Positions 458-14,624 of a stretch of DNA of 64,000 nucleotides are shown here, one piece after another. The position numbers and the translations under genes were made by a program. The DNA comes from Halobaculum sp. XH14 (GTDB taxonomy: Archaea; Halobacteriota; Halobacteria; Halobacteriales; Haloferacaceae), in the NCBI RefSeq assembly GCF_032116555.1, contig NZ_CP134949.1:2728001-2792000 (forward strand). The letters are read 5' to 3'. The notes under the pieces are model-generated. The model saw nothing but the letters and a program-made list of their open reading frames with translations. It was not told where the DNA came from and made no database searches. Numbering within the stretch: position 1 is the stretch's first letter; every line of letters starts with the position of its first letter.

Positions 458-913
458 GTGCATCTTGAACAAGAATCGGTCCCTGATCTTACTGAGTCTG
501 GTAAGAGAACACTATTCGTAGGAAAGGACAACCCGATCCGAATCAGCACCGGGCATCGCCTCCTCCACCATGATGGGAAATGTAGCCGTCCACACGGCCA
601 CAACTATGAGATCTCGGTTGAGGTCACCGGATCTCTCACTCAAGATGGCTGGGTTGTAGACAAAGGAGATATTACCTCAGTAATAGATGACTGGGACCAC
701 CGCTTCCTCCTCGAGAAGGACGACCCGCTCATCGACGCCTTCGAACAGAGCGGCGACGGTGATTCACTCGTCGTTCTTGAACACCCACCGACCGCGGAAG
801 TGATGGGGCTCGTCTTGGAACAAAAACTCCTCGAGACACTCCCAGAGTCACTCTCAGACATCTCAGTGACGGTGCGGGAGACATCAGAGCTCTGTGCGGG
901 GGCGACGCACTGA
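458..913 (+). CDS. queD: 6-carboxytetrahydropterin synthase QueD
   Basis: A member of the 6-pyruvoyl-tetrahydropterin synthase family. QueD converts 7,8-dihydroneopterin triphosphate to 6-carboxy-5,6,7,8-tetrahydropterin, the second step of preQ0 synthesis. The zinc ligands are visible as H33 in TGHRLLHH and H46/H48 in PHGHNY, and the catalytic Cys is C42. A long N-terminal extension of about 20 residues precedes the core. The start is a GTG at 458. The stop TGA shares its last base with the ATG of queE, so the two are translationally coupled. It is the first gene of queD-queE-folE-queC. The family call is secure; the QueD rather than PTPS assignment rests on the neighbours. Confidence 0.92.
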   Translation: MHLEQESVPDLTESGKRTLFVGKDNPIRISTGHRLLHHDGKCSRPHGHNYEISVEVTGSLTQDGWVVDKGDITSVIDDWDHRFLLEKDDPLIDAFEQSGDGDSLVVLEHPPTAEVMGLVLEQKLLETLPESLSDISVTVRETSELCAGATH

Positions 914-1686
914 TGCCAGTCAGTTCGACAGCTGATGAGCAGCCAACGGACGATGTCGATGGCGCGGCGCTGCCGGTCAACGAGCTCTTCTACTCGCTCC
1001 AGGGCGAGGGCAAACTCACCGGGACACCGTCGGTGTTCGTCCGAACGAGTGGCTGTAACCTCCGATGTTGGTTCTGTGACTCCTACCACACCTCATGGGA
1101 ACCGACCCACGCTACCATAAGCGTCGACGACATCGTCAAGGAGGTCCAGTCACACGACGACGCCGACCACGTCGTCCTCACTGGTGGCGAACCGCTCATC
1201 CATGACGATTCGGTCACCCTCCTGAAACACCTTGATGATCTCGGGTACCACACCACCGTCGAAACCAACGGCACCATCTACCGCGACGCCCCCATCGATC
1301 TGGCGAGTATCAGTCCGAAACTCGCCACCAGCACACCCACCACCGAGAAAGACCCCAAGGGCGATGGCGAGTGGGTGGACCGCCATGAGGACCGTCGTAT
1401 CGACCTCAACACGCTGAGCGCGCTCGTCGACGACTACGGTGCACAACTCAAGTTCGTCGTCACTGGCCACGACGATCTGCCCGAGATCGAATCCCTCCTC
1501 GCCGACGTCCGCTCGAAAGCGGCGAGTCACATCCCTGACTCCGACGTGTTGTTGATGCCGGAGGGAACGACTCGGGACGAACTCGACGCTCGCCGGAACG
1601 AGGTCGCCGACCTCGCGATGGAGTACGGCTACCGATACACGCCCCGCTTGCACGTCGACTTGTGGAACGACGCTCCCGAAACGTAA
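913..1686 (+). CDS. queE: 7-carboxy-7-deazaguanine synthase QueE (radical SAM)
   Basis: A radical SAM enzyme that contracts the ring of 6-carboxytetrahydropterin to 7-carboxy-7-deazaguanine. The iron-sulfur cysteines are C48, C52 and C55 in CNLRCWFC, with the CxxxCxxC spacing of the superfamily. They are followed by a SAM-binding TGGEP motif near residue 94 and an N-terminal NELFYSLQGEG segment typical of QueE. The length of 257 residues is normal. The ATG overlaps the queD stop codon by one base, and folE begins one base after the queE stop. Three of the four steps to preQ0 would be impossible without this gene, and it looks intact. Confidence 0.94.
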   Translation: MPVSSTADEQPTDDVDGAALPVNELFYSLQGEGKLTGTPSVFVRTSGCNLRCWFCDSYHTSWEPTHATISVDDIVKEVQSHDDADHVVLTGGEPLIHDDSVTLLKHLDDLGYHTTVETNGTIYRDAPIDLASISPKLATSTPTTEKDPKGDGEWVDRHEDRRIDLNTLSALVDDYGAQLKFVVTGHDDLPEIESLLADVRSKAASHIPDSDVLLMPEGTTRDELDARRNEVADLAMEYGYRYTPRLHVDLWNDAPET

Positions 1687-1687
1687 T

Positions 1688-2296
1688 ATGACGAGTACGC
1701 ATTCCCAATTCGCAACTGATGAGGTGGAATCAGACATCGACTACGAGAAGGCCCAGCGCGGCGTTCGCCTCCTGTTAGAGGCTGTCGGCGAGGACCCGGA
1801 CAGTGACGCGCTCGCGGAGACCTGCCAGCGGCGCGTTCCGGACACATTCGCGACACTCACTGAAGGTCAACGGGAGGCCGCGAAGCCGACGATGCGGACC
1901 TTCGACGCCGAGACAACCGACCTCGTCGTGAAAACCGGCATTCCCGTATACTCGCTGTGTGAACACCACTTGCTGCCGTTCTTTGGAACAGTCCATCTCG
2001 CGTATCAGCCGACAGACGAGGTAGTAGGGCTCTCGAAGCTGACTCGGTACGTTCGCTGGCAGTCACGCCAACTCACAATGCAGGAACGGCTGACGAACGA
2101 CATTGCGTCGGGGCTCAAAGAAGAACTCAACGCAGACACTGTTCTCGTCGAAGTGAACGCAACGCACCTCTGTGAGGCGATGCGTGGCGTCGAAACGGAA
2201 AGTACGACCACCACGAGAGCGACAGCCGGCGAACCGACCGCGGCCGAACGTGAGCGGTTCCAGGCAGCGATCAAGGGTACGGAGGGGCAGCGATGA
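1688..2296 (+). CDS. folE: GTP cyclohydrolase I, classical FolE type
   Basis: This enzyme opens GTP to 7,8-dihydroneopterin triphosphate, the first step of both folate-type pterin and preQ0 synthesis. The zinc site is visible: C91 and H94 in SLCEHHLLPF, and C162 in THLCEAMRG. At 202 residues it has the length of bacterial and eukaryotic FolE (type IA). Haloarchaea generally use the unrelated MptA/FolE2-type enzyme for this step, so a type IA enzyme here is unusual and points to import of the whole cassette. The start is one base after the queE stop. Its stop TGA overlaps the ATG of queC by four bases (ATGA). Confidence 0.93.
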   Translation: MTSTHSQFATDEVESDIDYEKAQRGVRLLLEAVGEDPDSDALAETCQRRVPDTFATLTEGQREAAKPTMRTFDAETTDLVVKTGIPVYSLCEHHLLPFFGTVHLAYQPTDEVVGLSKLTRYVRWQSRQLTMQERLTNDIASGLKEELNADTVLVEVNATHLCEAMRGVETESTTTTRATAGEPTAAERERFQAAIKGTEGQR

Positions 2297-2988
2297 GTGA
2301 CCAGCGAGCAGTTATCTTGGCTTCTGGGGGGATGGATAGCGCGACGGCTGCCGCTGTCGCGCAGGATACCGGCTACGAGTTGTACATGCTGCACACGTCC
2401 TACGGCCAGCAGACCGAGAGTAAAGAGTACGACTGTGCAAAGGCTCAGGCTAAGACCGTCGGCGCCGCTGATTTCCTTCACCTGACAACGGATCATCTCT
2501 CGAAAATCGGTGCGTCGAGTCTTACCGACGATGAGATGGACGTTGAGGAGGCGGACCTCGAAAGTGACGAAATTCCGTCAAGCTACGTGCCGTTCCGGAA
2601 CGCGAACCTGCTGTCGATGGCAACCTCGTACGCGGAAGCCAACGACTGTGCGGCTGTGTTCATCGGTGCGCACAGCGAGGACTTCTCGGGGTATCCGGAC
2701 TGCCGGCCGGAATTCTTCGAGGCATTCCAGCAGGTCGTCGACGTCGGCACGAAACCGGAGACGGAGATCAGCGTCGAAGCGCCGTTCGTCGAGTTGTCGA
2801 AGACGGACATCGCCGAGCGCGGTCTCGAACTCGAGGTCCCCTACGAGCACACTTGGAGTTGCTACCGGGACGAGGCACCAGCGTGTGGCACGTGTGACGC
2901 GTGTGCGTTCCGCCTCCAGGCGTTCCAGAATCTCGGCGCGCGCGATCCGATCGAATACGCCGAGCGCCCGGACTATACCGAATCATAG
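2293..2988 (+). CDS. queC: 7-cyano-7-deazaguanine (preQ0) synthase QueC
   Basis: An ATP-dependent enzyme of the PP-loop family that turns 7-carboxy-7-deazaguanine into preQ0. The PP-loop SGGMDS lies at residues 11-16. Four cysteines near the C-terminus (C190, C198, C201, C204; the last three in CGTCDAC) form the structural zinc site of the family. At 231 residues it has normal length and no visible lesion. It overlaps folE by four bases and ends the preQ0 cassette. The product could feed archaeosine in tRNA or a 7-deazaguanine modification of DNA. The gene next door, after a 438-base gap, belongs to a restriction-like block. Confidence 0.94.
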   Translation: MSDQRAVILASGGMDSATAAAVAQDTGYELYMLHTSYGQQTESKEYDCAKAQAKTVGAADFLHLTTDHLSKIGASSLTDDEMDVEEADLESDEIPSSYVPFRNANLLSMATSYAEANDCAAVFIGAHSEDFSGYPDCRPEFFEAFQQVVDVGTKPETEISVEAPFVELSKTDIAERGLELEVPYEHTWSCYRDEAPACGTCDACAFRLQAFQNLGARDPIEYAERPDYTES

Positions 2989-3426: not shown

Positions 3427-5322
3427 ATGATGGGCCTGGATCTTGACATACCTGACCAAAGAAACTCGTGGGGGACTCTAATAACATATACTACACAAAA
3501 GGAGAAGGAGAAAGTGATTGAATATTTAGGAGAGGAAATAGACAACCTACAGCGCCGAAATATTGGGGATATAGAAGATTTTGACCCCGCAATTGGCGTT
3601 GTGAATTGTGTTGATATTTCTGATAAGAGTGAAATTGTTCTGTCCGAACCTAAGGCAGGAAAGCAGGTAATGGGCTGGGTCAAAACCTACAAAACAGTTC
3701 TCCTCTGTAAGACCTGGCAATGGAAACTCCTCCAAACTCGAGACGGAAGATGGACTAGTCACCTGAACTCAATCCACCATATCTCCGACCACTCACCAAT
3801 TGAGAAGTCCGCACAACACCTCCTCAAAGAAGAAAATATATCGAAAAAGCAAAGCCGACTAGCTATTCACGAATACCTCCAACAAAGGGATCTCTTCACC
3901 GAGTTCCTTGATGAAGCTGGAATTAACCCTAACCGGCTTCAATCTATTATTGACCGAAAAGGGCTTTGGAATCTAAGCGACTCAGAGAAAGCACTCTTAC
4001 TTCGTCCAAACAAAGAACTCCTTCGCTACATAGCCGCTCAAGAGCTAAGAGAACGACAAGGAGGTCGGTTCGCCCGACAAGACTTCGTCAATCTCTTCGG
4101 CGAAATCCCCCGCCAAATCCAATCTAACAGCCAAAGATTCGAAGATATTCTTGAAGAAATGACTATTGAAGAAGGCGATATAGAGGAATTCAGTACAATT
4201 CAGGTTCTAGCAGGCATACTATGTCTCGATACCTTTGAGAACCAGTTGGAGCAAGCCATACGCGATAACCTTGCAAGGGAACCGAGTGACGTCCTTAATA
4301 ACATCGAAGAAGTAGACCGAAGCCAATTCCTGGAACGTTCAAGCTATATCGCCGAGTTTCTGGAGTCAGACCCCACAAGAAGCATCTTCTCAGCACTACT
4401 CACTGCAGTTAATCTAGATGGGATTAGTGGTGGGGATCCGTTCTTAGATATCCTAAAAAGATACCAGATGGAAGTCACGTCCAGAGATAAGGCCTTAGTG
4501 ACGAGACTTCTAGTCGAGAAAATTATTAGTGGGGACTACTCCTCTTCAAAAAACCACAGCGTGATAGCGGACTTCTTAGATGAAGATGGACCGAAAATAG
4601 TTCTCCTATTAGATGGTCTCCCACTCGCCACCCATGAAACGGCAGGATTCCTGTCTGAAAGGAAAACGGACGAGCGATGGGAAATTCAGCAGGCAATCGC
4701 CCCAATCCCGTCAGTAACGGAGATGTTTCGATCTTCCCTCAGCAGCGAATTAGACTTTGACGACTTAGGTGGATTTACTGATGGCGAAGATGGACTAGCA
4801 GGACTTGATTTAGATGCATTTCTCGGAGATGAAAAAGAGGAGGAACTCTTCGAAATGCTTCAGAATGGTGATTCAGTAATCATATACAACGCCGACATCG
4901 ATCAGGGTGCACGCTACCCTACAGATATTCATCGGAAGATAGACGCTCACTTGAGAGAAAATATCCCAGAATTTATACGAAAATACGGGGACCACGCTGA
5001 TATCTTAATCACATCAGATCACGGAATGGTCGAAACGCTTGAGTCGGAAGCTATTCCACGACCCACAGAAGCGAATCAAAGGGGAATGAGTCACTGTCGT
5101 GGAACATTTGTAGACGACGTCGATGAAATAAGGGGGGAACTCTCAGATGACACGGTAAGTTATATTGAAGTGGGATTACCAGACAGTGATGAGAATTGTG
5201 TGATGCTAAATCCTAACAACCCTAACGCGAAGTTTGGGACTCAAAGCTCCGACCTTTGGATTCACGGCGGAGTTTCTATAGAGGAGTCTGTTGTTCCTGT
5301 CGCAATTTGGAGGGGTGTATGA
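3427..5322 (+). CDS. pglZ: PglZ-domain protein (BREX-type alkaline phosphatase fold)
   Basis: The protein has 631 residues. Its C-terminal half carries the PglZ domain, an alkaline-phosphatase-superfamily fold found in BREX and related phage-exclusion systems. The metal-site motifs are visible: D396-G-L after a hydrophobic strand (VLLLDG), the diagnostic SDHG with D531-H532, and H613-G-G in WIHGGVSIEE near the C-terminus. The first 380 residues are helical and unlike anything I recognise. The family is required for phage resistance, but its substrate is not settled. It starts the AT-rich five-gene block, and the next gene begins one base after its stop. No PglX methyltransferase, the usual partner, is present. 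The start may be 3430 rather than 3427. Confidence 0.82.
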   Translation: MMGLDLDIPDQRNSWGTLITYTTQKEKEKVIEYLGEEIDNLQRRNIGDIEDFDPAIGVVNCVDISDKSEIVLSEPKAGKQVMGWVKTYKTVLLCKTWQWKLLQTRDGRWTSHLNSIHHISDHSPIEKSAQHLLKEENISKKQSRLAIHEYLQQRDLFTEFLDEAGINPNRLQSIIDRKGLWNLSDSEKALLLRPNKELLRYIAAQELRERQGGRFARQDFVNLFGEIPRQIQSNSQRFEDILEEMTIEEGDIEEFSTIQVLAGILCLDTFENQLEQAIRDNLAREPSDVLNNIEEVDRSQFLERSSYIAEFLESDPTRSIFSALLTAVNLDGISGGDPFLDILKRYQMEVTSRDKALVTRLLVEKIISGDYSSSKNHSVIADFLDEDGPKIVLLLDGLPLATHETAGFLSERKTDERWEIQQAIAPIPSVTEMFRSSLSSELDFDDLGGFTDGEDGLAGLDLDAFLGDEKEEELFEMLQNGDSVIIYNADIDQGARYPTDIHRKIDAHLRENIPEFIRKYGDHADILITSDHGMVETLESEAIPRPTEANQRGMSHCRGTFVDDVDEIRGELSDDTVSYIEVGLPDSDENCVMLNPNNPNAKFGTQSSDLWIHGGVSIEESVVPVAIWRGV

Positions 5323-5323
5323 G

Positions 5324-6319
5324 ATGTCTTTAAACAAACCTATGCCGAAAGGAGGTTATCGCACTATACTTGAAATCGTGAATATCCTAGGAGGTGAGGG
5401 AAGTCAATCCGTTAGAGACCTAGTATCAGAGCTTGACCAATTTGGCTACAGAATAGTTCAGGATGACAGTGGAGAAGACCATAGTCCTGCCCTCAGCCCA
5501 GGAGGACACACCTACTCTGAGATCACTCAGCTCCTGAACTTTGTAGAAGCTAAAGGTGATGACCCTCTAGATACTGAACTCAGTTTAACAGAAGAATCAG
5601 AGAACAACTTCGGCACCAAGACAAGCGGCAGAAAAGTCTACGATATTTTATCTACCGATAAATTAGATGATGAGACAAAAAGAGGAGCTGTTAGCGCATT
5701 AATACTCTCTCTTCTCTGCGAAGCCGATATTGATACCTCAAATGTGACTATTCCCAACGCATTCCGGACCTTCCTAACTAAAGTATGGGAACAAAAGGAT
5801 AAGTCTACAGGTCGTTATCAAACAAACTGGAGAAAAGACAACACGTACTTCAAAGATATCCTAACCGATCCTGAAATATCTGAGGACTGGAACGAAGAAA
5901 AGCTTCGCCACTGCGCAACAAGAGCTATTGACCTCGGTGTTTGCCGGCGCTCAGAAAGAGGCGGCAGCTCAGACCTCATATGCCCTGTACTTGTTGAAGA
6001 CATCTTCCAAGCGAGCGTGTTCTACATGAACCATCACTACCGAAAAGACCTGGCCGATACAACTCCAAATATACGGCAATTTTACAGTGATCTTAGCAAA
6101 TGGTATCCGATAGCCAAGGAGTTCTTCGAACAGAATGTCCTCTATGATGGCATTCTACACCAGAATACCAAAATATCTGATAAAACCTACCCTGTGCTTC
6201 ATGACCTGCTCAACCGGAATAACAATGAGACAAACAATTATCAAGTGAGATGGTTCGAAGGAGAGGATAGCTGGGATGAAAACGTCCGCTTCGCTGAATT
6301 CGAATTTGGAGTGATGTAA
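5324..6319 (+). CDS. Unknown protein of the PglZ-ATPase-helicase block
   Basis: A 331-residue protein with no motif I recognise. The N-terminal 90 residues (from GGYRTILEIVNILG) look like a winged-helix fold, with a helix-turn-helix followed by a Gly-rich turn (SPGGHTY). The rest is helical with Trp and charged residues (KWYPIAKEFFEQN). It has no signal peptide, membrane segment or cysteine cluster. It starts one base after the pglZ stop, and two bases separate its stop from the ATPase start. It is therefore almost certainly co-translated and a system component. I chose the ATG at 5324 because the upstream alternative lies inside pglZ. It could be a DNA-binding or adaptor subunit; that is a guess from position and fold impression only. 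Confidence 0.6.
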   Translation: MSLNKPMPKGGYRTILEIVNILGGEGSQSVRDLVSELDQFGYRIVQDDSGEDHSPALSPGGHTYSEITQLLNFVEAKGDDPLDTELSLTEESENNFGTKTSGRKVYDILSTDKLDDETKRGAVSALILSLLCEADIDTSNVTIPNAFRTFLTKVWEQKDKSTGRYQTNWRKDNTYFKDILTDPEISEDWNEEKLRHCATRAIDLGVCRRSERGGSSDLICPVLVEDIFQASVFYMNHHYRKDLADTTPNIRQFYSDLSKWYPIAKEFFEQNVLYDGILHQNTKISDKTYPVLHDLLNRNNNETNNYQVRWFEGEDSWDENVRFAEFEFGVM

Positions 6320-6321
6320 AA

Positions 6322-9300
6322 ATGGCTAAAAAACTGGAATCTGAAGCAGAAGAGGCACTTGAGTCGGAGTTGGGCATCAACCCACAACGATTCGATGTCG
6401 TATTCTCGCAGGTCTGGGACTCGGACGAAGATCCCGAGGATCGAGTCCACATCGATACAGAAGTCGAATCAGAAGTTCTCCGCCTCGTAGATGACTGGGC
6501 AGATCAAATCCACGATTCTGCAGGTAATCCCGGTGGCTCAGATGACGGCCTATTTCTCGTGATCGAAGGAGCTCAAGCTACCGGGAAGACCACGATGACC
6601 CGGTATACTCGGAACCAGTTAGACCCCACTGAAAATCCAGATCAATCGAATATCCCAATGATCATCCCGGTCTGGGATTCAACTGATCCAAATCCAACCT
6701 CCTTCAAATACAGAGGCCTCCTACAGAATGAGGGTCGCAGAGTCTTTGAGGAGTTAGATGTTCCTGACATAGACGACAAGATAGAACTTCTCAACGGAAT
6801 GGACGCAGAACTATCTGATGAAGAGATCTCAAAGATAGGGGAGCAACACGGAGCTAACGCAGAACAAGTCAAAGGAATTCTAGGAGAAGCAGGATTCGGA
6901 GGGGGAGAATACGAACCCAAGGAAGTTGTAAGCCAACTCGCCAGCGAAGGCTATCTCTTCCTATTCATCTTCGACGAGATGGTCTCTGAGAATGACGCAG
7001 AAAAAGCCAAATCTGTACTAAAATGGTTTAAAGACCACCTCTACCCATACGTTGGCCTTGTACTCTTCTCCCATCCAGACGTCTCTAGCGCCATTAAGAG
7101 CGAAATGCAGGACCAAGCTACCAGGAGAAATATTGACAGAACTCTCAACATCGCTGGGGAAACTTACGACATCAAAGAGGATATTGTCATCAACATCCGG
7201 GGCAAGCAGCACCGGATAATAGATATCGAAAAACTGCTCCAAGACTACTTTTCGGATGTATATATAGAGGAGGACCATCCCGATTACGGGCCTCTGGACG
7301 AGGCAAACCTCGAATGGATGAAACGGCTCTTAGCAGCAGGTGGTCTAATAGGGAACCTCATCGACGGCCTAAATACTGCTATCGAGCGATTCGCTCAGGA
7401 CAGAGCAGACGGTAATGACGAAAAAGAGATCGGGGCATATCTATTCGACGAATGCAGCCGGAAGATGAGTCACGTTCAAATCAAGCAACGGTTTGAGGGT
7501 AACTCAGATCTAGATCCGGATGAAGAAACAGAAGCAGTTTGGAGGGCAAAGGAACTGATCACGCAATCTACAGGCTTAGAGGAAGTGGAAGACGAGATTC
7601 AAAATGAGTTAGAACAAGCCCGTGTCCTGATTGAGGACTCCGACAGCGGAGTGCTCGATCTGAACCCATATTTGATGAACTATGAAGAGTCTGACTACTC
7701 TCGGTCGAGAGAAACCACTCCACGTACAACAGAGGAACCAGAAGGTCAGTTAGCAGCCTACCGGGATACAGTACAAAGCTTCAGTGATGACAAGGCCAGT
7801 GACCGCGGAACACTACGGAGAAATGTTGACATAGGTCTTTCAACTCTACTGGAAAGAGTTAATTCCCAGCAGGCGAACATTTCCCAGTCGTCTTCTCTCG
7901 CTCTTCCAGGCGGCAACAACCCTGAATCCGATTTCTTAGAACTAATAGGTTCCTCAACTACAGGACGTGCTGAGAAAATCGAAATAAGCGACGGAAACCT
8001 TTCCGAATACGACTATCGATTCCTCGCCACAACCCTCTTCTCAGATGACTCACTGAATGATCCAGAAATCCGCGACGATATCCAAGAGTGGTTTGACGGA
8101 GACAACGGATTACTCATCGTCACTAACAAAGATCCAGAGGATATCTCAAAACCGGGTTGGTTTGATGACACTATCGATAAACAGCGGTGGAGAGAAAACG
8201 AATACACGTGGGCAAATATAACCCAGATAATCCACGTTGACCGGCTAAGAGACTTATTAGGCCTTTACCGTCATCTCCAAGAGGAAGACTTCGAGAACGA
8301 TAGCGAAGTCTTAGCAGAAATCAGAAGACTTTCTGACCAGTCACAATTCCCGGAACTCCCTGATTTGGAGGATTTAGTAACGGGGCTTTACGAGGACTCC
8401 TCAGAAGCGGTCCGCAACATCCACAATAGCATCTACGAAAAGTATGATGGACCGACTATAGACGAAGCAGAAGCCTTCTCGGAAATCCTTGATGAGGTCA
8501 AGGATCGAGGCTTCATTTCAGATGAAGTTCTGGATAAGCTTCGGGAAGATCATGGAGTTGAAATAGAATCTCTAATCAAAAAAGGCGCTATAAAACGGTT
8601 CGAAACAGAAGATGATCGGACAGTCGTCTATTTGAAGCAAGAGTTCGGTGGAGCATCTAAGATTGGAAGAGTCAGTGACAAAAGAGACCTCTTCCCGGTG
8701 GGGCCAGAAATCTTCGATAAACTCGAAGAATTCCACGGGATGGAATCCGGCCGTGTCATGCGGGATGACGACGAAATCAGTAACAGGCTGGATAACCTGG
8801 AAAAGAAGAGCAGCATAGTCGACTTCTTCCTCTATAACGAGGATAAACTGGCAGACATCAAAAGCGAGATCAATGACTCCGATGTCAAAATCTTCTCTGA
8901 CGTCTTAGACAAGATTGCAGAAGCAAAACAGACTGACGAGGAAGACTTTAAACTCGTAAGAGAAAAATTTGAAGCCGATCAAGACCTCTGGTCAAAAATA
9001 CAAGACTTAGATGTCGATGATGACATCTCACCAATTCACCGAGAGCTCTTCTACGCTAAACTCCCAGAACAACCGCCAAATTGGGCCACAGACTACATAG
9101 ACGACGACAGAGACTATCCTACTCTAATCTACGATCTTCACAAAACAATTCAGCAAATACTGGAAGAACTCGATGACGTGGATGAGGAAGTCTCTGAGGG
9201 ATTCGAAGACGAAAGCAGCGACCTGGAAGAGCTACGTTCCGACTTAGAAGAATTCGCGGATATTGATTCAAGCTCGGAAGATGATGTTGAACTCAATGAT

Positions 9301-10086
9301 TCGAACTCAGAGACTCTATCAGAACTGTCCAAAGAAGATCTCGAGGACTTCGACTTCGAGTCCTTCATCTCGGACATTGCTGAGAATGAATCCAAAAGAA
9401 GCAATCTGAGCAGTGCGACCGGACTACTAACTAGAGCGGATCGAACCCGTAACACCTTCGTTGAGACCCTAGACATAGAATCTCTAAAGGACATAGACCA
9501 CGACAAAGCTTCAGACCACACCGATGTCGGAAAGCAGATCGTCCAACGACTATTAGACGACGACGTCCTCTTCGACGACGACAGCGATGAACCAGAGATA
9601 GTCCTTCAAGACCTTCAGGACTTCTGTGAGAATACCAGGAAGCTAATCCAGGACTCCTCAAAATTACAAGAGTTGACAGAAAATGCAGAAGAGGAGCAGG
9701 AGAAGGTAGAATCGGTTCCCGGAGATGATATAGAGGATAAGCTGGAGCATCTCGAAGAAAAGGTCGAGGACATAGATAACGCTGAGAGGTACCTCAAACT
9801 CAAAGAAGAACACTGTGAGGTCTGTAAAAGCGATTGGAAGGATCTATCGCTGGAACGGAAAGAAGAAATTGAAGATGAGCTGGAACGGATGGAAGAGGAT
9901 TATCCGGATGTCGACTTCTCCTTAGACTCTATTGAATCAGAAAAGGACGCCGCTGAAGACAAAAAAGAGGAAGCAGACGACGTAGAAGAAGAGTTGGAAA
10001 AGATAGAGAGGAAGAAGGGTCAAATCGATCTCAGCGAATACACCAGTGAGTTAGGAAACCTCCAGGAGAAGTATGCCTCAGATTAA
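6322..10086 (+). CDS. Giant P-loop ATPase with zinc-hook-like coiled coil (BrxC/PglY-like)
   Basis: A 1254-residue protein with one ATPase domain near the N-terminus. Walker A is GAQATGKT at 83-90 and Walker B is LFIFDE ending at D218-E219. After about 850 residues of helical sequence, the C-terminal quarter is extremely acidic and predicted coiled coil. Around C1165 and C1168 (HCEVCKSDW) two long Glu/Lys-rich helices flank a CxxC, resembling the hook of Rad50. The size, single N-terminal P-loop and position next to PglZ recall BrxC/PglY of BREX. The large ATPases of Dpd or Pbe systems are alternatives. I see no nuclease or methylase motif. ATP-driven assembly or DNA handling is an inference. 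Confidence 0.72.
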   Translation: MAKKLESEAEEALESELGINPQRFDVVFSQVWDSDEDPEDRVHIDTEVESEVLRLVDDWADQIHDSAGNPGGSDDGLFLVIEGAQATGKTTMTRYTRNQLDPTENPDQSNIPMIIPVWDSTDPNPTSFKYRGLLQNEGRRVFEELDVPDIDDKIELLNGMDAELSDEEISKIGEQHGANAEQVKGILGEAGFGGGEYEPKEVVSQLASEGYLFLFIFDEMVSENDAEKAKSVLKWFKDHLYPYVGLVLFSHPDVSSAIKSEMQDQATRRNIDRTLNIAGETYDIKEDIVINIRGKQHRIIDIEKLLQDYFSDVYIEEDHPDYGPLDEANLEWMKRLLAAGGLIGNLIDGLNTAIERFAQDRADGNDEKEIGAYLFDECSRKMSHVQIKQRFEGNSDLDPDEETEAVWRAKELITQSTGLEEVEDEIQNELEQARVLIEDSDSGVLDLNPYLMNYEESDYSRSRETTPRTTEEPEGQLAAYRDTVQSFSDDKASDRGTLRRNVDIGLSTLLERVNSQQANISQSSSLALPGGNNPESDFLELIGSSTTGRAEKIEISDGNLSEYDYRFLATTLFSDDSLNDPEIRDDIQEWFDGDNGLLIVTNKDPEDISKPGWFDDTIDKQRWRENEYTWANITQIIHVDRLRDLLGLYRHLQEEDFENDSEVLAEIRRLSDQSQFPELPDLEDLVTGLYEDSSEAVRNIHNSIYEKYDGPTIDEAEAFSEILDEVKDRGFISDEVLDKLREDHGVEIESLIKKGAIKRFETEDDRTVVYLKQEFGGASKIGRVSDKRDLFPVGPEIFDKLEEFHGMESGRVMRDDDEISNRLDNLEKKSSIVDFFLYNEDKLADIKSEINDSDVKIFSDVLDKIAEAKQTDEEDFKLVREKFEADQDLWSKIQDLDVDDDISPIHRELFYAKLPEQPPNWATDYIDDDRDYPTLIYDLHKTIQQILEELDDVDEEVSEGFEDESSDLEELRSDLEEFADIDSSSEDDVELNDSNSETLSELSKEDLEDFDFESFISDIAENESKRSNLSSATGLLTRADRTRNTFVETLDIESLKDIDHDKASDHTDVGKQIVQRLLDDDVLFDDDSDEPEIVLQDLQDFCENTRKLIQDSSKLQELTENAEEEQEKVESVPGDDIEDKLEHLEEKVEDIDNAERYLKLKEEHCEVCKSDWKDLSLERKEEIEDELERMEEDYPDVDFSLDSIESEKDAAEDKKEEADDVEEELEKIERKKGQIDLSEYTSELGNLQEKYASD

Positions 10087-10107
10087 GCCTGAGGAGAAGT
10101 GGTCTCA

Positions 10108-13100
10108 ATGAATATCCTAGATATCAAAAACAGGTCTGTTGATCACCTCACCGAGACGATTTGGTGGAACAAAGGCCTGACTAAACTCAACGAAGATACG
10201 ATTTCGAACTACAACGAGTTTATCGATAACCTGGTTCAGGTCAAGGGGCCTTATCTCGAAAAAGTCCAACCACCTAAGTTTTCGAATCAACCTTGGCCCT
10301 ACTACTGTGAAAACCACGACATCCAACATGAGGTACAGTCAGCGATCCGCGACGTAGTTTTCGGTGGAGGTGACGGTCGTCTTTACCGACACCAAGGAAG
10401 AGCAGTAGGATCTATCTTGGACTCAGTCCACGGAGACACAGAAGACGACGTCATCATAACAGTTCCGACTGCCACAGGGAAAACAGAGTGCTTCGTAATA
10501 CCCGCTCTCGACACCGCTATCAGAAATCAACAAGAGCGAGAATTCCCTCGACAAATCAAATCACTCATCATCTATCCTCAGAAGGCACTCGAAACCGACC
10601 AACTTGACCGCCTGGTGAAATACACATACGAAATCAATAATCAACGGCCCAGCACTGAAGGCGTCAAAATAGGCATCTATGACGGAGACACCCCAAGAGG
10701 GCAATATAAAATCTCCAGCGGCCAAAACGTCCGAGGATTAGAATGCCCTGAATGCGACCAGAAATTAGGCTGGGATCAAGACTCTGGAACGATGGTCTGC
10801 ACAAACACTGAGGAACATCGCAGGCCAGTTGAAATCGACTTCTTGGAGCTCACCCGAGACGATATTGAAGAAAACGGGGCGGACATCCTACTCACGAATC
10901 CCGAGGCGCTTGAGTTCCGATTCTTTTCCTCTGATTCACGAGATTTAGTCAACTCTGATCTCTTGGATCTCGTGGTTTTCGACGAGGCCCACGTCTGGAA
11001 CGGGAACGGAGGTAAAGCAATCTCGCAGTTCATCAGCCGTTTAAGAAATCGTTACGGCTCCACAATGGTCTTGGCCAGTGCTACCATTGCCAACCCCAAG
11101 GAATTCGCTTCAGACCTTCTCAACCGTACTGAAACAGGTATAGATCATATTGACTTCGAAGCAGGGAATGTGGATACAAGACATCGAAGCACCAGCGAAT
11201 TCACCTCCTTAGATTTCCTATCCCCTCAGAACGGTTTCCGGATGCTGAGAGAAATCAGAGAAGGGAATCCAGACGTATCTGACCTAAAATCACTTGCGGA
11301 AGCTTCAGAAAAAGAGGTCCAGTCTACACTGACTCTTCTCCAGAGAATCGGTTATTTGGATAGTCAACAGGAGGCTACAGAACACGCAGAAGAACTCTTA
11401 GACGAGATAGAGAAACGAAATACAATAGAGGATAATGAACTCCAATCCGTATTCAACGAAGTTCTAAGATTCAGAGAACAGATAGCGGACAGCTTAGTCA
11501 ACGAAGTTCCCCAGGTTGCAGAGATATTCGACCAATTTGGCGAAGAAAATTTCATCGAAGTAGAAAGACTACTGGAGAGCATATTCACCGATCAGATTCA
11601 AGAAAACCAGTTTGAGACGCTCACTAATCTACTCGAATGGTGTAAATTAGGTGGAGTCCTCTACGACCGCTATCACTACTTCATCAAGCCGTATGTGAAC
11701 TTTTTCTACTGTCCTGACTGCCAAAGCATGTTCACGGAACGAGTTTCGGAGGGAGGAAGAGATCACCATTCTCTCCGAGAAGTCAAATTCTGCTCCAACT
11801 GCCACACACCATATTACGTAGACAGAGGCGAAGAATATGCAATCGGAGAACCTTGCTCCTGCTCCAGGCGCAGCTATACTGAGCCACCAATGCAGACAAC
11901 CACTTTCCTATCCTACTTCCTATCTAAGCTCGGTAGAGATATGAAGGAATTCGGAGCAGGCAAAGTCCTAGTCTTCTCTAATCGGAGAGGAGACGCAGAA
12001 GGAGTCGGCTCTCTAATGATGAAACTCGACTACTCGTTGGAAAGCGAGAGAATGATGGTATCATTATTAGAAGAGCAGGATGACGACCAATTCTACTCCG
12101 TCTCAAATCTCCGAGAAGACCTATACGAAGAGCTGAAAGAATACTACGTAAAGCAACCTTACACATATTTGGAGGACGAAACGCTCTCGCAAGGCCTCTT
12201 CTCGCAGCTAGGTGCTCTAGCAAATCCTCTCGACAAAGGCAACCATCGGAAATTGTGGGATGCAGGGATTCTCAGTGTTAGACCCGAGTCAGAAAACGAT
12301 GAAATCAACCTCATAGCGAACGAGATCGTGAAAATTCTGGCGTTCAAACCCCATACTGATCTGGATCAAAGTAATAGCATCAAAATCGATTCTCTAAAAT
12401 CTAAACTCTCAAACTCGGTGCCGACCTATTTCGATTCAGCACCTGATCTTGACGCGAAACTTGACGAAGCACTCTCCGTCTTGGAGCAAGCAGACATTAT
12501 TAGCCGAGAAAGAGAGCGGTCTAGCGATGAAGTCGTAACTATCCTCACCCTGAGAAGGAACTTCCTCGAGCTAGATGTTCAAAAAGAAGCCTGTGTTTGC
12601 GAATTTTGTTATTCAGGATGGCCATTCTGGGATAGAAGTTACTGTCCAGACTGTGGCGAGCACTTAGTCGAAGTGGACCGGGATTCATACGATAAAGTCG
12701 AATTCGACCAGGAAGAGTACTCACTAGACCACTGGGGAAATGTGGTCCTCGGTCACGGAGTTGATCCTCTCGTAAGTGCAGTGCATAAGGCCGGTATAAA
12801 GACCGATACTCGGAATAAAATCGAAGAAGGGTTCGGCGCAAATCCGCCCAAGATCAACGTAGTATCAGCTACAAACACCCTGGAGCTCGGCATAGACATA
12901 GGAACTCTCGATTGCATCGCCGGGCTGGGTATTCCACCTACAAAGACAAGCTATGTCCAGCGAGCTGGTCGTACTGGACGTAGCTTAGACCAGTCCTCAA
13001 TGGTGTTCACGGTTGCTCGTCCTCACAACGCCGTGGATAACTTCTATTTCGAAGATATAGAAAGTAGATTCCTCAATGCACCTTCCAAACCGGTACAGAT

Positions 13101-13947
13101 CAACCACCTCAATTACGATATCCTTAAGACACAGGTGATGTCCGAGGTACTCACATATCTGAATCTGAACGATCTCGACTATGGACGATTTGAGCGGTTC
13201 AAAACGGGCCAGGATATTGACGATGTGATTAATGAAGTCTACGACGGTGTAGAAGCATTACTGGATACTGTCGATGAAAATCAAGACTCTATCAAGGAGC
13301 ACTTGGAAGGTGCGTTTAAATCGGGTGAAGAGGACCTTGAACAAGCATTAGAAGATCTGTTTGAGAGCCCGTCTGAAGTAAAACAGCGTGTGCTTCGCCG
13401 ACTTTTCAAATTCTACACAACCTTCCGGGCATTGGAAAAGGAAACTGGCCAGGGTGCTCAGGGTCTCAGAAGGCGGAGAGTCATCCAGGAAGAAATTCTT
13501 CAGGAACTGGAGAGGGAAGTTGGATACCTGCCAATGCTTCTGTCCAGTGCCGGAATGATCAGCCAATACCGTTCCACCGAGGATTCAGTAGCGCTCTTCC
13601 GAGAAAAGGAAAGTGAGGAAAACGGTCAAGTCCATCTCAGCTACGAATCCAAGAGCGTCTCACAAGCATTGAGAGAATCATATCCAGAAGCAATGGACAC
13701 CTATGGAGGAGTCGACTACGAGGTTGTGAGTGCACAAGTTAGTCGAGATGAAATTTTCTCCACCAGCGTTTGCACAAACCAATTATGCACTCTTCCCTAC
13801 AATGAATACCCTGCCTTAGAAGTCTGCCCGCTCTGTGGAGATGACTTAGAGGAAATCAGCGTTCACGAATACTTGGGAGCGGTGCTCAAATCATCCAGAT
13901 CCAGAAAGAGAACACGGCCGCTGATAATGCGAGGTGTTGACTTTTGA
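10108..13947 (+). CDS. DEAH-box helicase with zinc clusters (DrmA/DpdJ-like)
   Basis: A superfamily-2 helicase of 1279 residues from the ATG at 10108. Motif I is TATGKT (121-126, K125), motif II is DEAH (292-295), motif III is SAT, and motif VI is QRAGRTGR (951-958). The two RecA lobes are separated by a long insert with several CxxC pairs (CPDCQSM, CSNCHTPYY, CEFCYSGW, CPDCGEH). Another CxxC pair (CPLCGDD) lies close to the C-terminus. This layout is typical of helicases that carry a C-terminal DUF1998 domain, as in DISARM and Dpd systems, but here that domain is encoded by the next gene. An upstream GTG at 10099 is possible, but the GAGGAG at 10091-10096 would be too close to it. Confidence 0.82.
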   Translation: MNILDIKNRSVDHLTETIWWNKGLTKLNEDTISNYNEFIDNLVQVKGPYLEKVQPPKFSNQPWPYYCENHDIQHEVQSAIRDVVFGGGDGRLYRHQGRAVGSILDSVHGDTEDDVIITVPTATGKTECFVIPALDTAIRNQQEREFPRQIKSLIIYPQKALETDQLDRLVKYTYEINNQRPSTEGVKIGIYDGDTPRGQYKISSGQNVRGLECPECDQKLGWDQDSGTMVCTNTEEHRRPVEIDFLELTRDDIEENGADILLTNPEALEFRFFSSDSRDLVNSDLLDLVVFDEAHVWNGNGGKAISQFISRLRNRYGSTMVLASATIANPKEFASDLLNRTETGIDHIDFEAGNVDTRHRSTSEFTSLDFLSPQNGFRMLREIREGNPDVSDLKSLAEASEKEVQSTLTLLQRIGYLDSQQEATEHAEELLDEIEKRNTIEDNELQSVFNEVLRFREQIADSLVNEVPQVAEIFDQFGEENFIEVERLLESIFTDQIQENQFETLTNLLEWCKLGGVLYDRYHYFIKPYVNFFYCPDCQSMFTERVSEGGRDHHSLREVKFCSNCHTPYYVDRGEEYAIGEPCSCSRRSYTEPPMQTTTFLSYFLSKLGRDMKEFGAGKVLVFSNRRGDAEGVGSLMMKLDYSLESERMMVSLLEEQDDDQFYSVSNLREDLYEELKEYYVKQPYTYLEDETLSQGLFSQLGALANPLDKGNHRKLWDAGILSVRPESENDEINLIANEIVKILAFKPHTDLDQSNSIKIDSLKSKLSNSVPTYFDSAPDLDAKLDEALSVLEQADIISRERERSSDEVVTILTLRRNFLELDVQKEACVCEFCYSGWPFWDRSYCPDCGEHLVEVDRDSYDKVEFDQEEYSLDHWGNVVLGHGVDPLVSAVHKAGIKTDTRNKIEEGFGANPPKINVVSATNTLELGIDIGTLDCIAGLGIPPTKTSYVQRAGRTGRSLDQSSMVFTVARPHNAVDNFYFEDIESRFLNAPSKPVQINHLNYDILKTQVMSEVLTYLNLNDLDYGRFERFKTGQDIDDVINEVYDGVEALLDTVDENQDSIKEHLEGAFKSGEEDLEQALEDLFESPSEVKQRVLRRLFKFYTTFRALEKETGQGAQGLRRRRVIQEEILQELEREVGYLPMLLSSAGMISQYRSTEDSVALFREKESEENGQVHLSYESKSVSQALRESYPEAMDTYGGVDYEVVSAQVSRDEIFSTSVCTNQLCTLPYNEYPALEVCPLCGDDLEEISVHEYLGAVLKSSRSRKRTRPLIMRGVDF

Positions 13948-14624
13948 CTGAGTTCTCCGAGAACTTCGAAGAAGCACTTGACTTGGACGAAGACGAGATA
14001 GAAGGAGGTCTAACACGAGACGCCGAAACACTGGATGAGACATACTTCAAGGATCTTCACATCCGCTTCGTATCTAACCTGAAAGTTCGAAGTACCGTGC
14101 CCAAAGTCGAAATTAGCTATTTCTCCAACAGCAACGTCGAAGACGCAAAAGGAGATATCCTGAAATTTGAAGATGGGGAAGTGAAATGGGATCACGCTAT
14201 TCCCGGTCATCAACATCCAACCGATGGGATCGTCTTTCTACATAGAATCGAAGATCTCAGATCGAAGCTCGGATCGAATGATAACAGGAAGGCAATTACA
14301 GCTGCATACTCGGCCGGATATGGACTTAGATCTATAATTTCTAGAAATCTCGGTGTCGACAGCTTGGATATCCAGTGTTCTGTAACAATGTCTCAACGGT
14401 TTATTCAGCTAATTGTCTATGACGCCGACGTAGGCGGAGCAGGATTATCCCACGCAGTCTATCAGGACTTAGAAGAGTTCCTATGGGAAACGAGAACCGC
14501 TCTGGATGATTGTGTCTGCCCGGATTTCTGTGAACAATGTCTCCTCCTACCACGAACACCCACACATATCATTGAAGAGGGGCTTCTGAATCGGTTTGAT
14601 GGCCTAAAGTTCCTCTCTGACTGA
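13944..14624 (+). CDS. Stand-alone DUF1998-type protein, partner of the helicase
   Basis: A 226-residue protein starting at a TTG that overlaps the helicase stop (TTGA), so it depends on translation of the helicase. Its C-terminal half has the DUF1998 signature: a hydrophobic strand into YDADVGGAG, then a helix and a cysteine cluster C190, C192, C196 and C199 in CVCPDFCEQC. In most relatives this domain is the C-terminal end of the DEAH helicase or of a DrmB-like protein. Here it looks like that domain made as a separate subunit. The first 60 residues are acidic. It ends the nine-gene directional run. Confidence 0.72.
   Translation: MTEFSENFEEALDLDEDEIEGGLTRDAETLDETYFKDLHIRFVSNLKVRSTVPKVEISYFSNSNVEDAKGDILKFEDGEVKWDHAIPGHQHPTDGIVFLHRIEDLRSKLGSNDNRKAITAAYSAGYGLRSIISRNLGVDSLDIQCSVTMSQRFIQLIVYDADVGGAGLSHAVYQDLEEFLWETRTALDDCVCPDFCEQCLLLPRTPTHIIEEGLLNRFDGLKFLSD

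What the first reader, a model, noticed from the sequence alone, without database searches (positions are those of the whole stretch)
9600..10086. Zinc-hook-like CxxC inside a coiled coil at the end of the defence ATPase
C1165 and C1168 sit at the tip between two long Glu/Lys-rich helices, as in the Rad50 hook, but the ATPase domain is a single AAA-like P-loop and not an ABC type. Dimerisation through a shared zinc could bridge two complexes on DNA. I know of no BrxC/PglY relative with such a hook.
Basis: partly seen in the sequence, partly recalled or inferred. Interest (0 to 1): 0.6.

Follow-up and report, generated by a model that had tools for sequence, protein, structure and literature searches.

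The report
CxxC-tipped tail on haloarchaeal defence ATPase
A salt-loving archaeon carries a rare version of a defence system that probably marks its own DNA with a 7-deazaguanine base, and the tail of that system's large ATPase ends in a helical hairpin-like region with a conserved cysteine pair at its turn, probably a metal-binding contact point that resembles the Rad50 zinc hook in layout but is not shown to be one.

Summary
ORF 6322-10086 (1254 aa) has one CxxC (C1165, C1168; codons 9814-9825), in a Glu/Lys-rich helical tail. In the only homologue found (Halobacteriales QH_7_66_36, 73% identical) the pair sits in the longest invariant run of the tail (19 residues, 1154-1172). AlphaFold2 (two sequences, pLDDT 67) breaks the helix at 1170-1176, just after the pair, so it is not one straight helix; zinc, hairpin orientation and dimerisation are unproven. 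The tip does not match the Rad50 hook profile (CEVC, not CPxC). Type-1 BrxC lack it. The ATPase belongs to an operon PglZ / 331 aa / ATPase / YprA-type helicase / MZB, next to a DpdA-DpdC fusion, a second TGT, a BrxD-like ATPase and preQ0 genes: a Dpd/BRIGADE-like 7-deazaguanine system with a BREX-3-like PglZ instead of the usual nuclease. The second genome has the same kind of locus. A plasmid with a 96% identical DpdA carries a different restriction module there, so modules are exchanged.

The parts
9814..9825 (+). CxxC motif C1165-E-V-C1168 at the putative hairpin tip
9781..9837 (+). 19-residue invariant block A1154-W1172 (AERYLKLKEEHCEVCKSDW)
   Evidence: longest identical run in the tail; 1.6% of shuffles reach it
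9589..9711 (+). helix A of the tail (residues 1090-1130)
   Evidence: AF2 model m0afde17dd1e9; 3.5-residue periodicity
9730..9828 (+). helix B leading into the CxxC (residues 1137-1169)
9829..9849 (+). predicted turn after the CxxC (residues 1170-1176)
9850..9900 (+). helix C leaving the tip (residues 1177-1193)
9922..10023 (+). helix D (residues 1201-1234), after a Pro-containing break 1194-1200
6322..10086 (+). large P-loop ATPase, 1254 aa, BrxC/DpdH-like in layout, unclassified by profile
6568..6594 (+). Walker A GAQATGKTT (residues 83-91)
   Evidence: sequence; weak AAA_22 match 76-141, E 0.049
6955..6978 (+). Walker B-like LFLFIFDE (residues 212-219)
   Evidence: sequence, identical in L001
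3427..5322 (+). PglZ-family protein, closest to BREX-3 PglZ
   Evidence: PADLOC PglZ 3.6e-7; NCBIfam BREX_PglZ_3 4.2e-7, below its curated cut-off; hhalign to BREX-3 PglZ E 9.7e-6
5324..6319 (+). 331-aa partner of unknown family, 74% identical in L001
10099..13947 (+). YprA-type SF2 helicase (DruE/DpdJ-like) with six CxxC motifs
13944..14624 (+). separate MZB (DUF1998) protein overlapping the helicase stop by 4 bases
   Evidence: MZB E 1.5e-10
458..2988 (+). preQ0 synthesis genes queD, queE, folE, queC

Best explanation
The locus is a rare variant of the haloarchaeal Dpd/BRIGADE type of defence. A modification cassette (DpdA fused to a DpdC-like domain, a second TGT, wHTH, BrxD-like ATPase, with its own preQ0 genes) marks host DNA with a 7-deazaguanine. 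A restriction module (PglZ, 331-aa protein, BrxC/DpdH-like ATPase, YprA-type helicase, MZB protein) attacks unmarked DNA, PglZ being the likely nuclease. The ATPase's C-terminal ~160 residues form a helical extension that turns at the CxxC. The cysteine pair most likely binds zinc. Since only two Cys (plus the adjacent H1164) are conserved at the tip, the remaining ligands probably come from a second chain, most simply a second copy of the ATPase (hook-like), joining tails of a multimer or of two complexes. Shown: motif, conservation in the one homologue, predicted helix break, operon and its link to Dpd genes in both genomes. Inferred: DNA modification, nuclease role of PglZ, metal binding, hairpin orientation, partner of the tip.
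For: CxxC and 19-residue block invariant at 64% tail identity. Helix break at 1170-1176 and flanking helices with heptad-like periodicity. Tail cysteines also conserved in BREX-3 BrxC: all three of C-x13-CPxC in 12 of 13, and all lost together in Klebsiella, as expected of a metal site. DpdA E 2e-75 with DpdC hits in the same frame. preQ0 genes. The second genome has the complete set too, with its own DpdA-like protein, FolE, QueD, QueE, QueC, small TGT, wHTH and BrxD-like ATPase beside the same five genes. PglZ as primary nuclease of type-1 BREX is stated in PMC12839542.
Against: Only one homologue, so conservation is one comparison. AF2 used two sequences, pLDDT 67 overall, and arm orientation was not visible. 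Foldseek gave no significant match (best E 0.15). No CPxC and no Rad50_zn_hook match. BREX-3 tips have a third Cys (and often a His in the motif), which suggests an intramolecular site there. Conserved cysteines in the 331-aa protein (C197, C207), PglZ (C61, C94, C557, C591) and the Zn-rich helicase could equally supply ligands.
Confidence: 0.5

Rival explanations
1. The CxxC is half of a zinc site completed by another protein of the operon (the 331-aa protein, PglZ or the Zn-rich helicase/MZB pair), so the tail tip is a docking point for a partner and not a homodimer hook.
For: Conserved Cys/His in the 331-aa protein (H196, C197, C207) and in PglZ; six CxxC in the helicase and a Cys cluster in MZB; co-conservation of the whole module in both genomes.
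Against: The CxxC motifs of the helicase look like self-contained zinc ribbons/knuckles; no covariation can be tested with two loci.
Confidence: 0.25
2. The CxxC is a local intramolecular zinc knuckle, as the C-x13-CPxC of BREX-3 BrxC suggests, capping the coiled-coil tip without joining chains; H1164 or another residue (C1102, H1143) completes the site.
For: BREX-3 BrxC tails have three conserved Cys and often CPHC. C1102, H1143 and H1164 are conserved in both sequences.
Against: In the window protein the nearest other Cys is 63 residues away and H1143 lies in the same predicted helix, about 22 residues off; homology of the two tails is not detectable.
Confidence: 0.18
3. The pair has no metal function (chance retention, or a redox or structural pair in an otherwise ordinary BrxC-like coiled-coil tail).
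For: BREX-3 BrxC of Klebsiella has lost its three cysteines while the protein stays intact; type-1 BrxC have none.
Against: The longest invariant run of the tail contains the pair; Cys is rare in this protein (0.3%); CxxC is unlikely by chance (0.013-0.08 expected).
Confidence: 0.07

Closest known systems
BRIGADE / Dpd systems of haloarchaea (PMC12458937; Dpd: DpdA-K)
   Same: DpdA-type TGT and preQ0 genes, YprA-family helicase with DUF1998, large P-loop ATPase, found in halophilic archaea
   Different: PglZ-like protein in place of PLD or PD-(D/E)XK nuclease; one YprA helicase, not two, with DUF1998 in a separate gene; ATPase not recognised by DpdH models; CxxC tail
BREX type 3 (BrxC = DUF6079, PglZ of the BREX-3 kind)
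   Same: PglZ closest to BREX-3 PglZ; large N-terminal P-loop ATPase with helical tail; tail cysteines including a CxxC
   Different: no methyltransferase or BrxF in the operon; no sequence match of the ATPase beyond the P-loop; BREX-3 tip has three Cys and CPxC about 140 aa from the C-terminus, here two Cys about 87 aa from it
BREX-Related Capture (BRC) system of PMC12839542
   Same: BrxC-like ATPase + PglZ, in some members with a TGT
   Different: BRC is built around HerA/FtsK with DUF4007 and STAND NTPase; none of these is in the window's five-gene operon
Rad50/SbcC zinc hook (PF04423); also hook-bearing RloC and Lamassu LmuB
   Same: CxxC at a turn between helices of a coiled coil on an ATPase
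   Different: no ABC ATPase, no CPxC, no profile match, tail at the C-terminus and not inserted between Walker A and B
BrxC type 1 / haloarchaeal BrxC-PglY-like ATPases
   Same: size, N-terminal P-loop, C-terminal coiled coil with a distal subdomain (PMC12839542)
   Different: no CxxC anywhere in 20 haloarchaeal BrxC/BrxC-like proteins and in those of six plasmids

Membership tests
Rad50-type zinc hook | CPxC motif / PF04423 match | tested here: not met
   CEVC; no PF04423 match for the tip, the window ATPase is not among PF04423 matches in its own genome, and no match to a haloarchaeal hook profile at the CxxC
Rad50-type zinc hook | ABC-type ATPase with the coiled coil inserted between Walker A and Walker B | tested here: not met
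   Walker A 83-91, Walker B-like 212-219, CxxC at 1165 downstream of both
Rad50-type zinc hook | antiparallel coiled-coil hairpin with CxxC at the apex | tested here: inconclusive
   AF2 helix break at 1170-1176, block pLDDT about 60-80, orientation not seen; no significant Foldseek match
Rad50-type zinc hook | zinc-mediated dimerisation | not testable with these tools
   no metal or dimer prediction available; no experiment
BrxC / DUF6079 (BREX) | match to NF033441, PF19557 or PADLOC BrxC models | tested here: not met
   no match; G000 has no match in the genome searches
BrxC / DUF6079 (BREX) | PglZ partner in the operon | tested here: met
BrxC / DUF6079 (BREX) | BREX methyltransferase in the operon | tested here: not met
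   none of the five operon proteins matches one
BrxC / DUF6079 (BREX) | conserved CxxC in the C-terminal tail (BREX-3 only) | tested here: met
   CEVC at 1165-1168; BREX-3 members (similar feature, homology not shown)
DpdH (Dpd ATPase) | match to DpdH models | tested here: not met
   no PADLOC/NCBIfam match; best profile-profile match, limited to the P-loop region, is to haloarchaeal DpdH-like proteins (pairwise E 0.003)
Dpd/BRIGADE | DpdA and preQ0 synthesis genes | tested here: met
Dpd/BRIGADE | YprA-family helicase with DUF1998/MZB | tested here: met
   DruE 1.3e-36, DpdJ 1.5e-34; MZB 1.5e-10 in the next gene
Dpd/BRIGADE | usually two YprA helicases and a PLD or PD-(D/E)XK nuclease | tested here: not met
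   one helicase and PglZ in the five-gene operon
Dpd/BRIGADE | 7-deazaguanine present in the DNA | not testable with these tools
   needs mass spectrometry of DNA

The most novel reading that the evidence does not exclude
A non-ABC (AAA-like, BrxC/DpdH-like) defence ATPase uses a C-terminal zinc hook to join two copies tail-to-tail, bridging two PglZ/helicase restriction complexes on 7-deazaguanine-unmarked DNA: a convergent zinc hook outside the Rad50/SMC superfamily, in a PglZ-bearing Dpd/BRIGADE variant not described in the papers read.
Probability: 0.3. Interest if true: 0.7.

Novelty: new variant of a known kind. Interest (0 to 1): 0.5.

Why it matters
If true, it gives a testable answer to how BrxC-like ATPases assemble: the distal tip of their coiled coils would be a metal-controlled contact in at least two lineages (this family and BREX-3). 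It also shows a PglZ effector paired with 7-deazaguanine marking instead of methylation, and restriction modules exchanged beside a nearly constant modification cassette, which bears on how PglZ systems tell self from non-self.

Tried and rejected
Relatives: genome contigs (1 locus), IMG/VR by sequence and by two profiles (none), plasmids by ATPase and by PglZ (none), 99 + 293 + 295 genomes of relatives/order/phylum (only G000 and G227; the hit in G217 is an intein-bearing MCM-like protein and was rejected), and the surroundings of about 30 haloarchaeal DpdA genes (no further copy). AF2 of the N-terminal 963 residues failed (pLDDT 32), so no fold search was made on it. Foldseek of the tail gave only generic helical proteins, best E 0.15. 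PDB sequence searches found nothing useful. Profile-profile comparison could not place the ATPase in BrxC, DUF6079 or DpdH with confidence. The 331-aa protein matched nothing. Considered and rejected: membership in the Rad50 hook family; filing the ATPase as BrxC or PglY. Limits: loci of about half of the haloarchaeal BrxC-like controls end 75-100 residues before the C-terminus, so a tip very close to the end could be missed in those; 'two sequences' is the whole family available here.

Full report
What was checked. The ORF at 6322-10086 (+) encodes 1254 residues; C1165 and C1168 lie at 9814-9816 and 9823-9825. It is the only CxxC of the protein, which has four cysteines in all; by chance 0.013 (own Cys frequency) to 0.08 (0.8% Cys) would be expected. 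One homologue was found, in Halobacteriales archaeon QH_7_66_36 (L001 = G227), 73% identical over the whole length. The tail (961-1254) is 64% identical, but 1154-1172 (AERYLKLKEEHCEVCKSDW) is an unbroken run of 19 identities, the longest of the tail; 1.6% of shuffles reach it. In 1155-1172 four codons differ, all synonymously, while the 49 codons before carry 24 amino-acid changes. So the motif is real, and this comparison suggests constraint, though it is a single comparison.

Shape of the tail. AlphaFold2 with the two sequences (pLDDT 67, pTM 0.44) gives helices at 1090-1130, 1137-1169, 1177-1193, 1201-1234 and 1238-1252, with the break 1170-1176 immediately after the CxxC. The four longer helices show 3.5-residue periodicity of hydrophobic residues (shuffle p 0.0004-0.03 in the window protein; weaker in L001 for helices A and B). 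Foldseek against the PDB gave only non-significant helical matches (best E 0.15).

Is it a Rad50 hook? By membership tests, no. The motif is CEVC, not CPxC. Pfam finds no Rad50_zn_hook in the tip, and the window ATPase is not among the PF04423 matches of its own genome. A profile made from five hook-bearing haloarchaeal proteins, one of them the Rad50-like protein near a dpdA gene in G034, finds nothing at the CxxC. The ATPase has one P-loop with Walker A at 83-91 and a Walker B-like strand at 212-219, and the tail lies after both. Whether it works like a hook is a separate question. Two cysteines cannot complete a tetrahedral site alone and no third is nearby, so a second chain is the simplest source, but partner proteins of the operon also hold conserved Cys/His.

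The claim that no BrxC relative has such a feature. I checked 20 haloarchaeal BrxC/BrxC-like proteins, type-1 BrxC and BrxC-like proteins from six plasmids, four 'P0001-type' coiled-coil ATPases and 14 haloarchaeal DpdH-like ATPases: none has a tail CxxC (about half of the 20 are cut 75-100 residues short). But the DUF6079 proteins do: 8 of 9 from archaea of this phylum have C-x13-CPxC (or CSxC) about 140 residues from the C-terminus. With four plasmid copies added, 12 of 13 keep all three cysteines, and the one exception (Klebsiella) has lost all three together. Gene order and annotation identify them as BREX-3 BrxC (brxF, DUF6079, methyltransferase, BREX-3 PglZ). PMC12839542 had already compared the distal subdomain of BrxC coiled coils with the Zn-hook and hinge; the passages I read do not mention the cysteines. 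So the window's tip has a counterpart, though homology of the two tails cannot be shown (hhalign not significant).

What system it belongs to. The operon is PglZ-like (3427-5322; PADLOC PglZ 3.6e-7, BREX_PglZ_3 4.2e-7 but far below that model's cut-off; hhalign to a BREX-3 PglZ E 9.7e-6), a 331-aa protein without relatives in any library, the ATPase, an SF2 helicase of the YprA kind (DruE 1.3e-36, DpdJ 1.5e-34) and a separate MZB/DUF1998 protein (1.5e-10). Upstream lie queD, queE, folE and queC (window 458-2988) and, just outside the window, a 967-aa protein that matches DpdA (2e-75) and, further along, DpdC, then a second TGT-like protein (344 aa), a wHTH protein and a BrxD-like ATPase. In the second genome the same five genes stand beside a different DpdA-like protein, the small TGT, wHTH, BrxD-like ATPase and FolE, QueD, QueE, QueC. 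The association is therefore found in both known copies.

Comparison. PMC12458937 describes BRIGADE: Dpd-like 7-deazaguanine systems of halophilic archaea with usually two YprA helicases and a PLD or PD-(D/E)XK nuclease; the word PglZ does not occur in that paper. About 30 haloarchaeal genomes carry DpdA, and those whose surroundings I read mostly have such modules. The window's module, with PglZ and one split YprA helicase, was found in two genomes only. On a Halorientalis litorea plasmid a 96% identical DpdA, the same preQ0 genes and the small TGT/wHTH/BrxD-like set adjoin a quite different module: a 1130-aa coiled-coil ATPase, a DpdJ-like helicase and a PD-(D/E)XK nuclease. Restriction modules are thus exchanged beside a nearly constant modification cassette.

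Mechanism, with status. Shown by sequence: motif, its conservation in the one homologue, helix break (predicted), operon, linkage to dpd and preQ0 genes. Inferred from families: host DNA carries a 7-deazaguanine; the helicase/ATPase complex acts on unmarked DNA; [quoted passage not shown] Inferred from anatomy: the tail tip binds zinc (about 0.65) with a ligand pair from a second chain, most likely another ATPase tail (about 0.3-0.35 for a true homodimeric hook).

Verdict. It is a new variant of a known kind: a PglZ-bearing Dpd/BRIGADE-like system whose ATPase has a cysteine-tipped tail, with BREX-3 BrxC as the nearest known parallel for the tip.

Noticed in passing
L005 8694-11597 (G000 C1:2724694-2727597, just upstream of the window): 967-aa fusion of DpdA (E 2e-75) with a DpdC/DUF6884-like C-terminal part; some other haloarchaea have the two parts as separate genes.
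   Followed up: partly
L064 (Halorientalis litorea plasmid NZ_CP095485) against the window: 96% identical DpdA and the same preQ0 genes, but a completely different restriction module: module exchange beside a constant modification cassette.
   Followed up: partly
L155-L163, L185, L187, L188 (BREX-3 BrxC / DUF6079 tails): Conserved C-x13-CPxC in the C-terminal tail, lost as a set in Klebsiella L186: a probable zinc site not mentioned in the BREX passages read.
   Followed up: partly
window 10099-14624: YprA-type helicase split from its MZB/DUF1998 part into two overlapping genes (4 bases), as in DISARM DrmA/DrmB.
   Followed up: no
L114 8799-12092 (-): Rad50/SMC-like 1098-aa ATPase with a classical CPKC hook in the neighbourhood of a haloarchaeal dpdA gene.
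   Followed up: no
L095 10300-13365 and L116 89-3181: Two DpdH-like ATPases with a three-CxxC zinc cluster in the middle (about residues 518-550), absent from the other DpdH-like proteins examined.
   Followed up: no
L129 14356-16368: 670-aa protein with a P-loop (GQSGSGKTT), possibly HerA/FtsK-like by eye, two genes after queC in the second genome's locus; might link it to capture-type systems.
   Followed up: no
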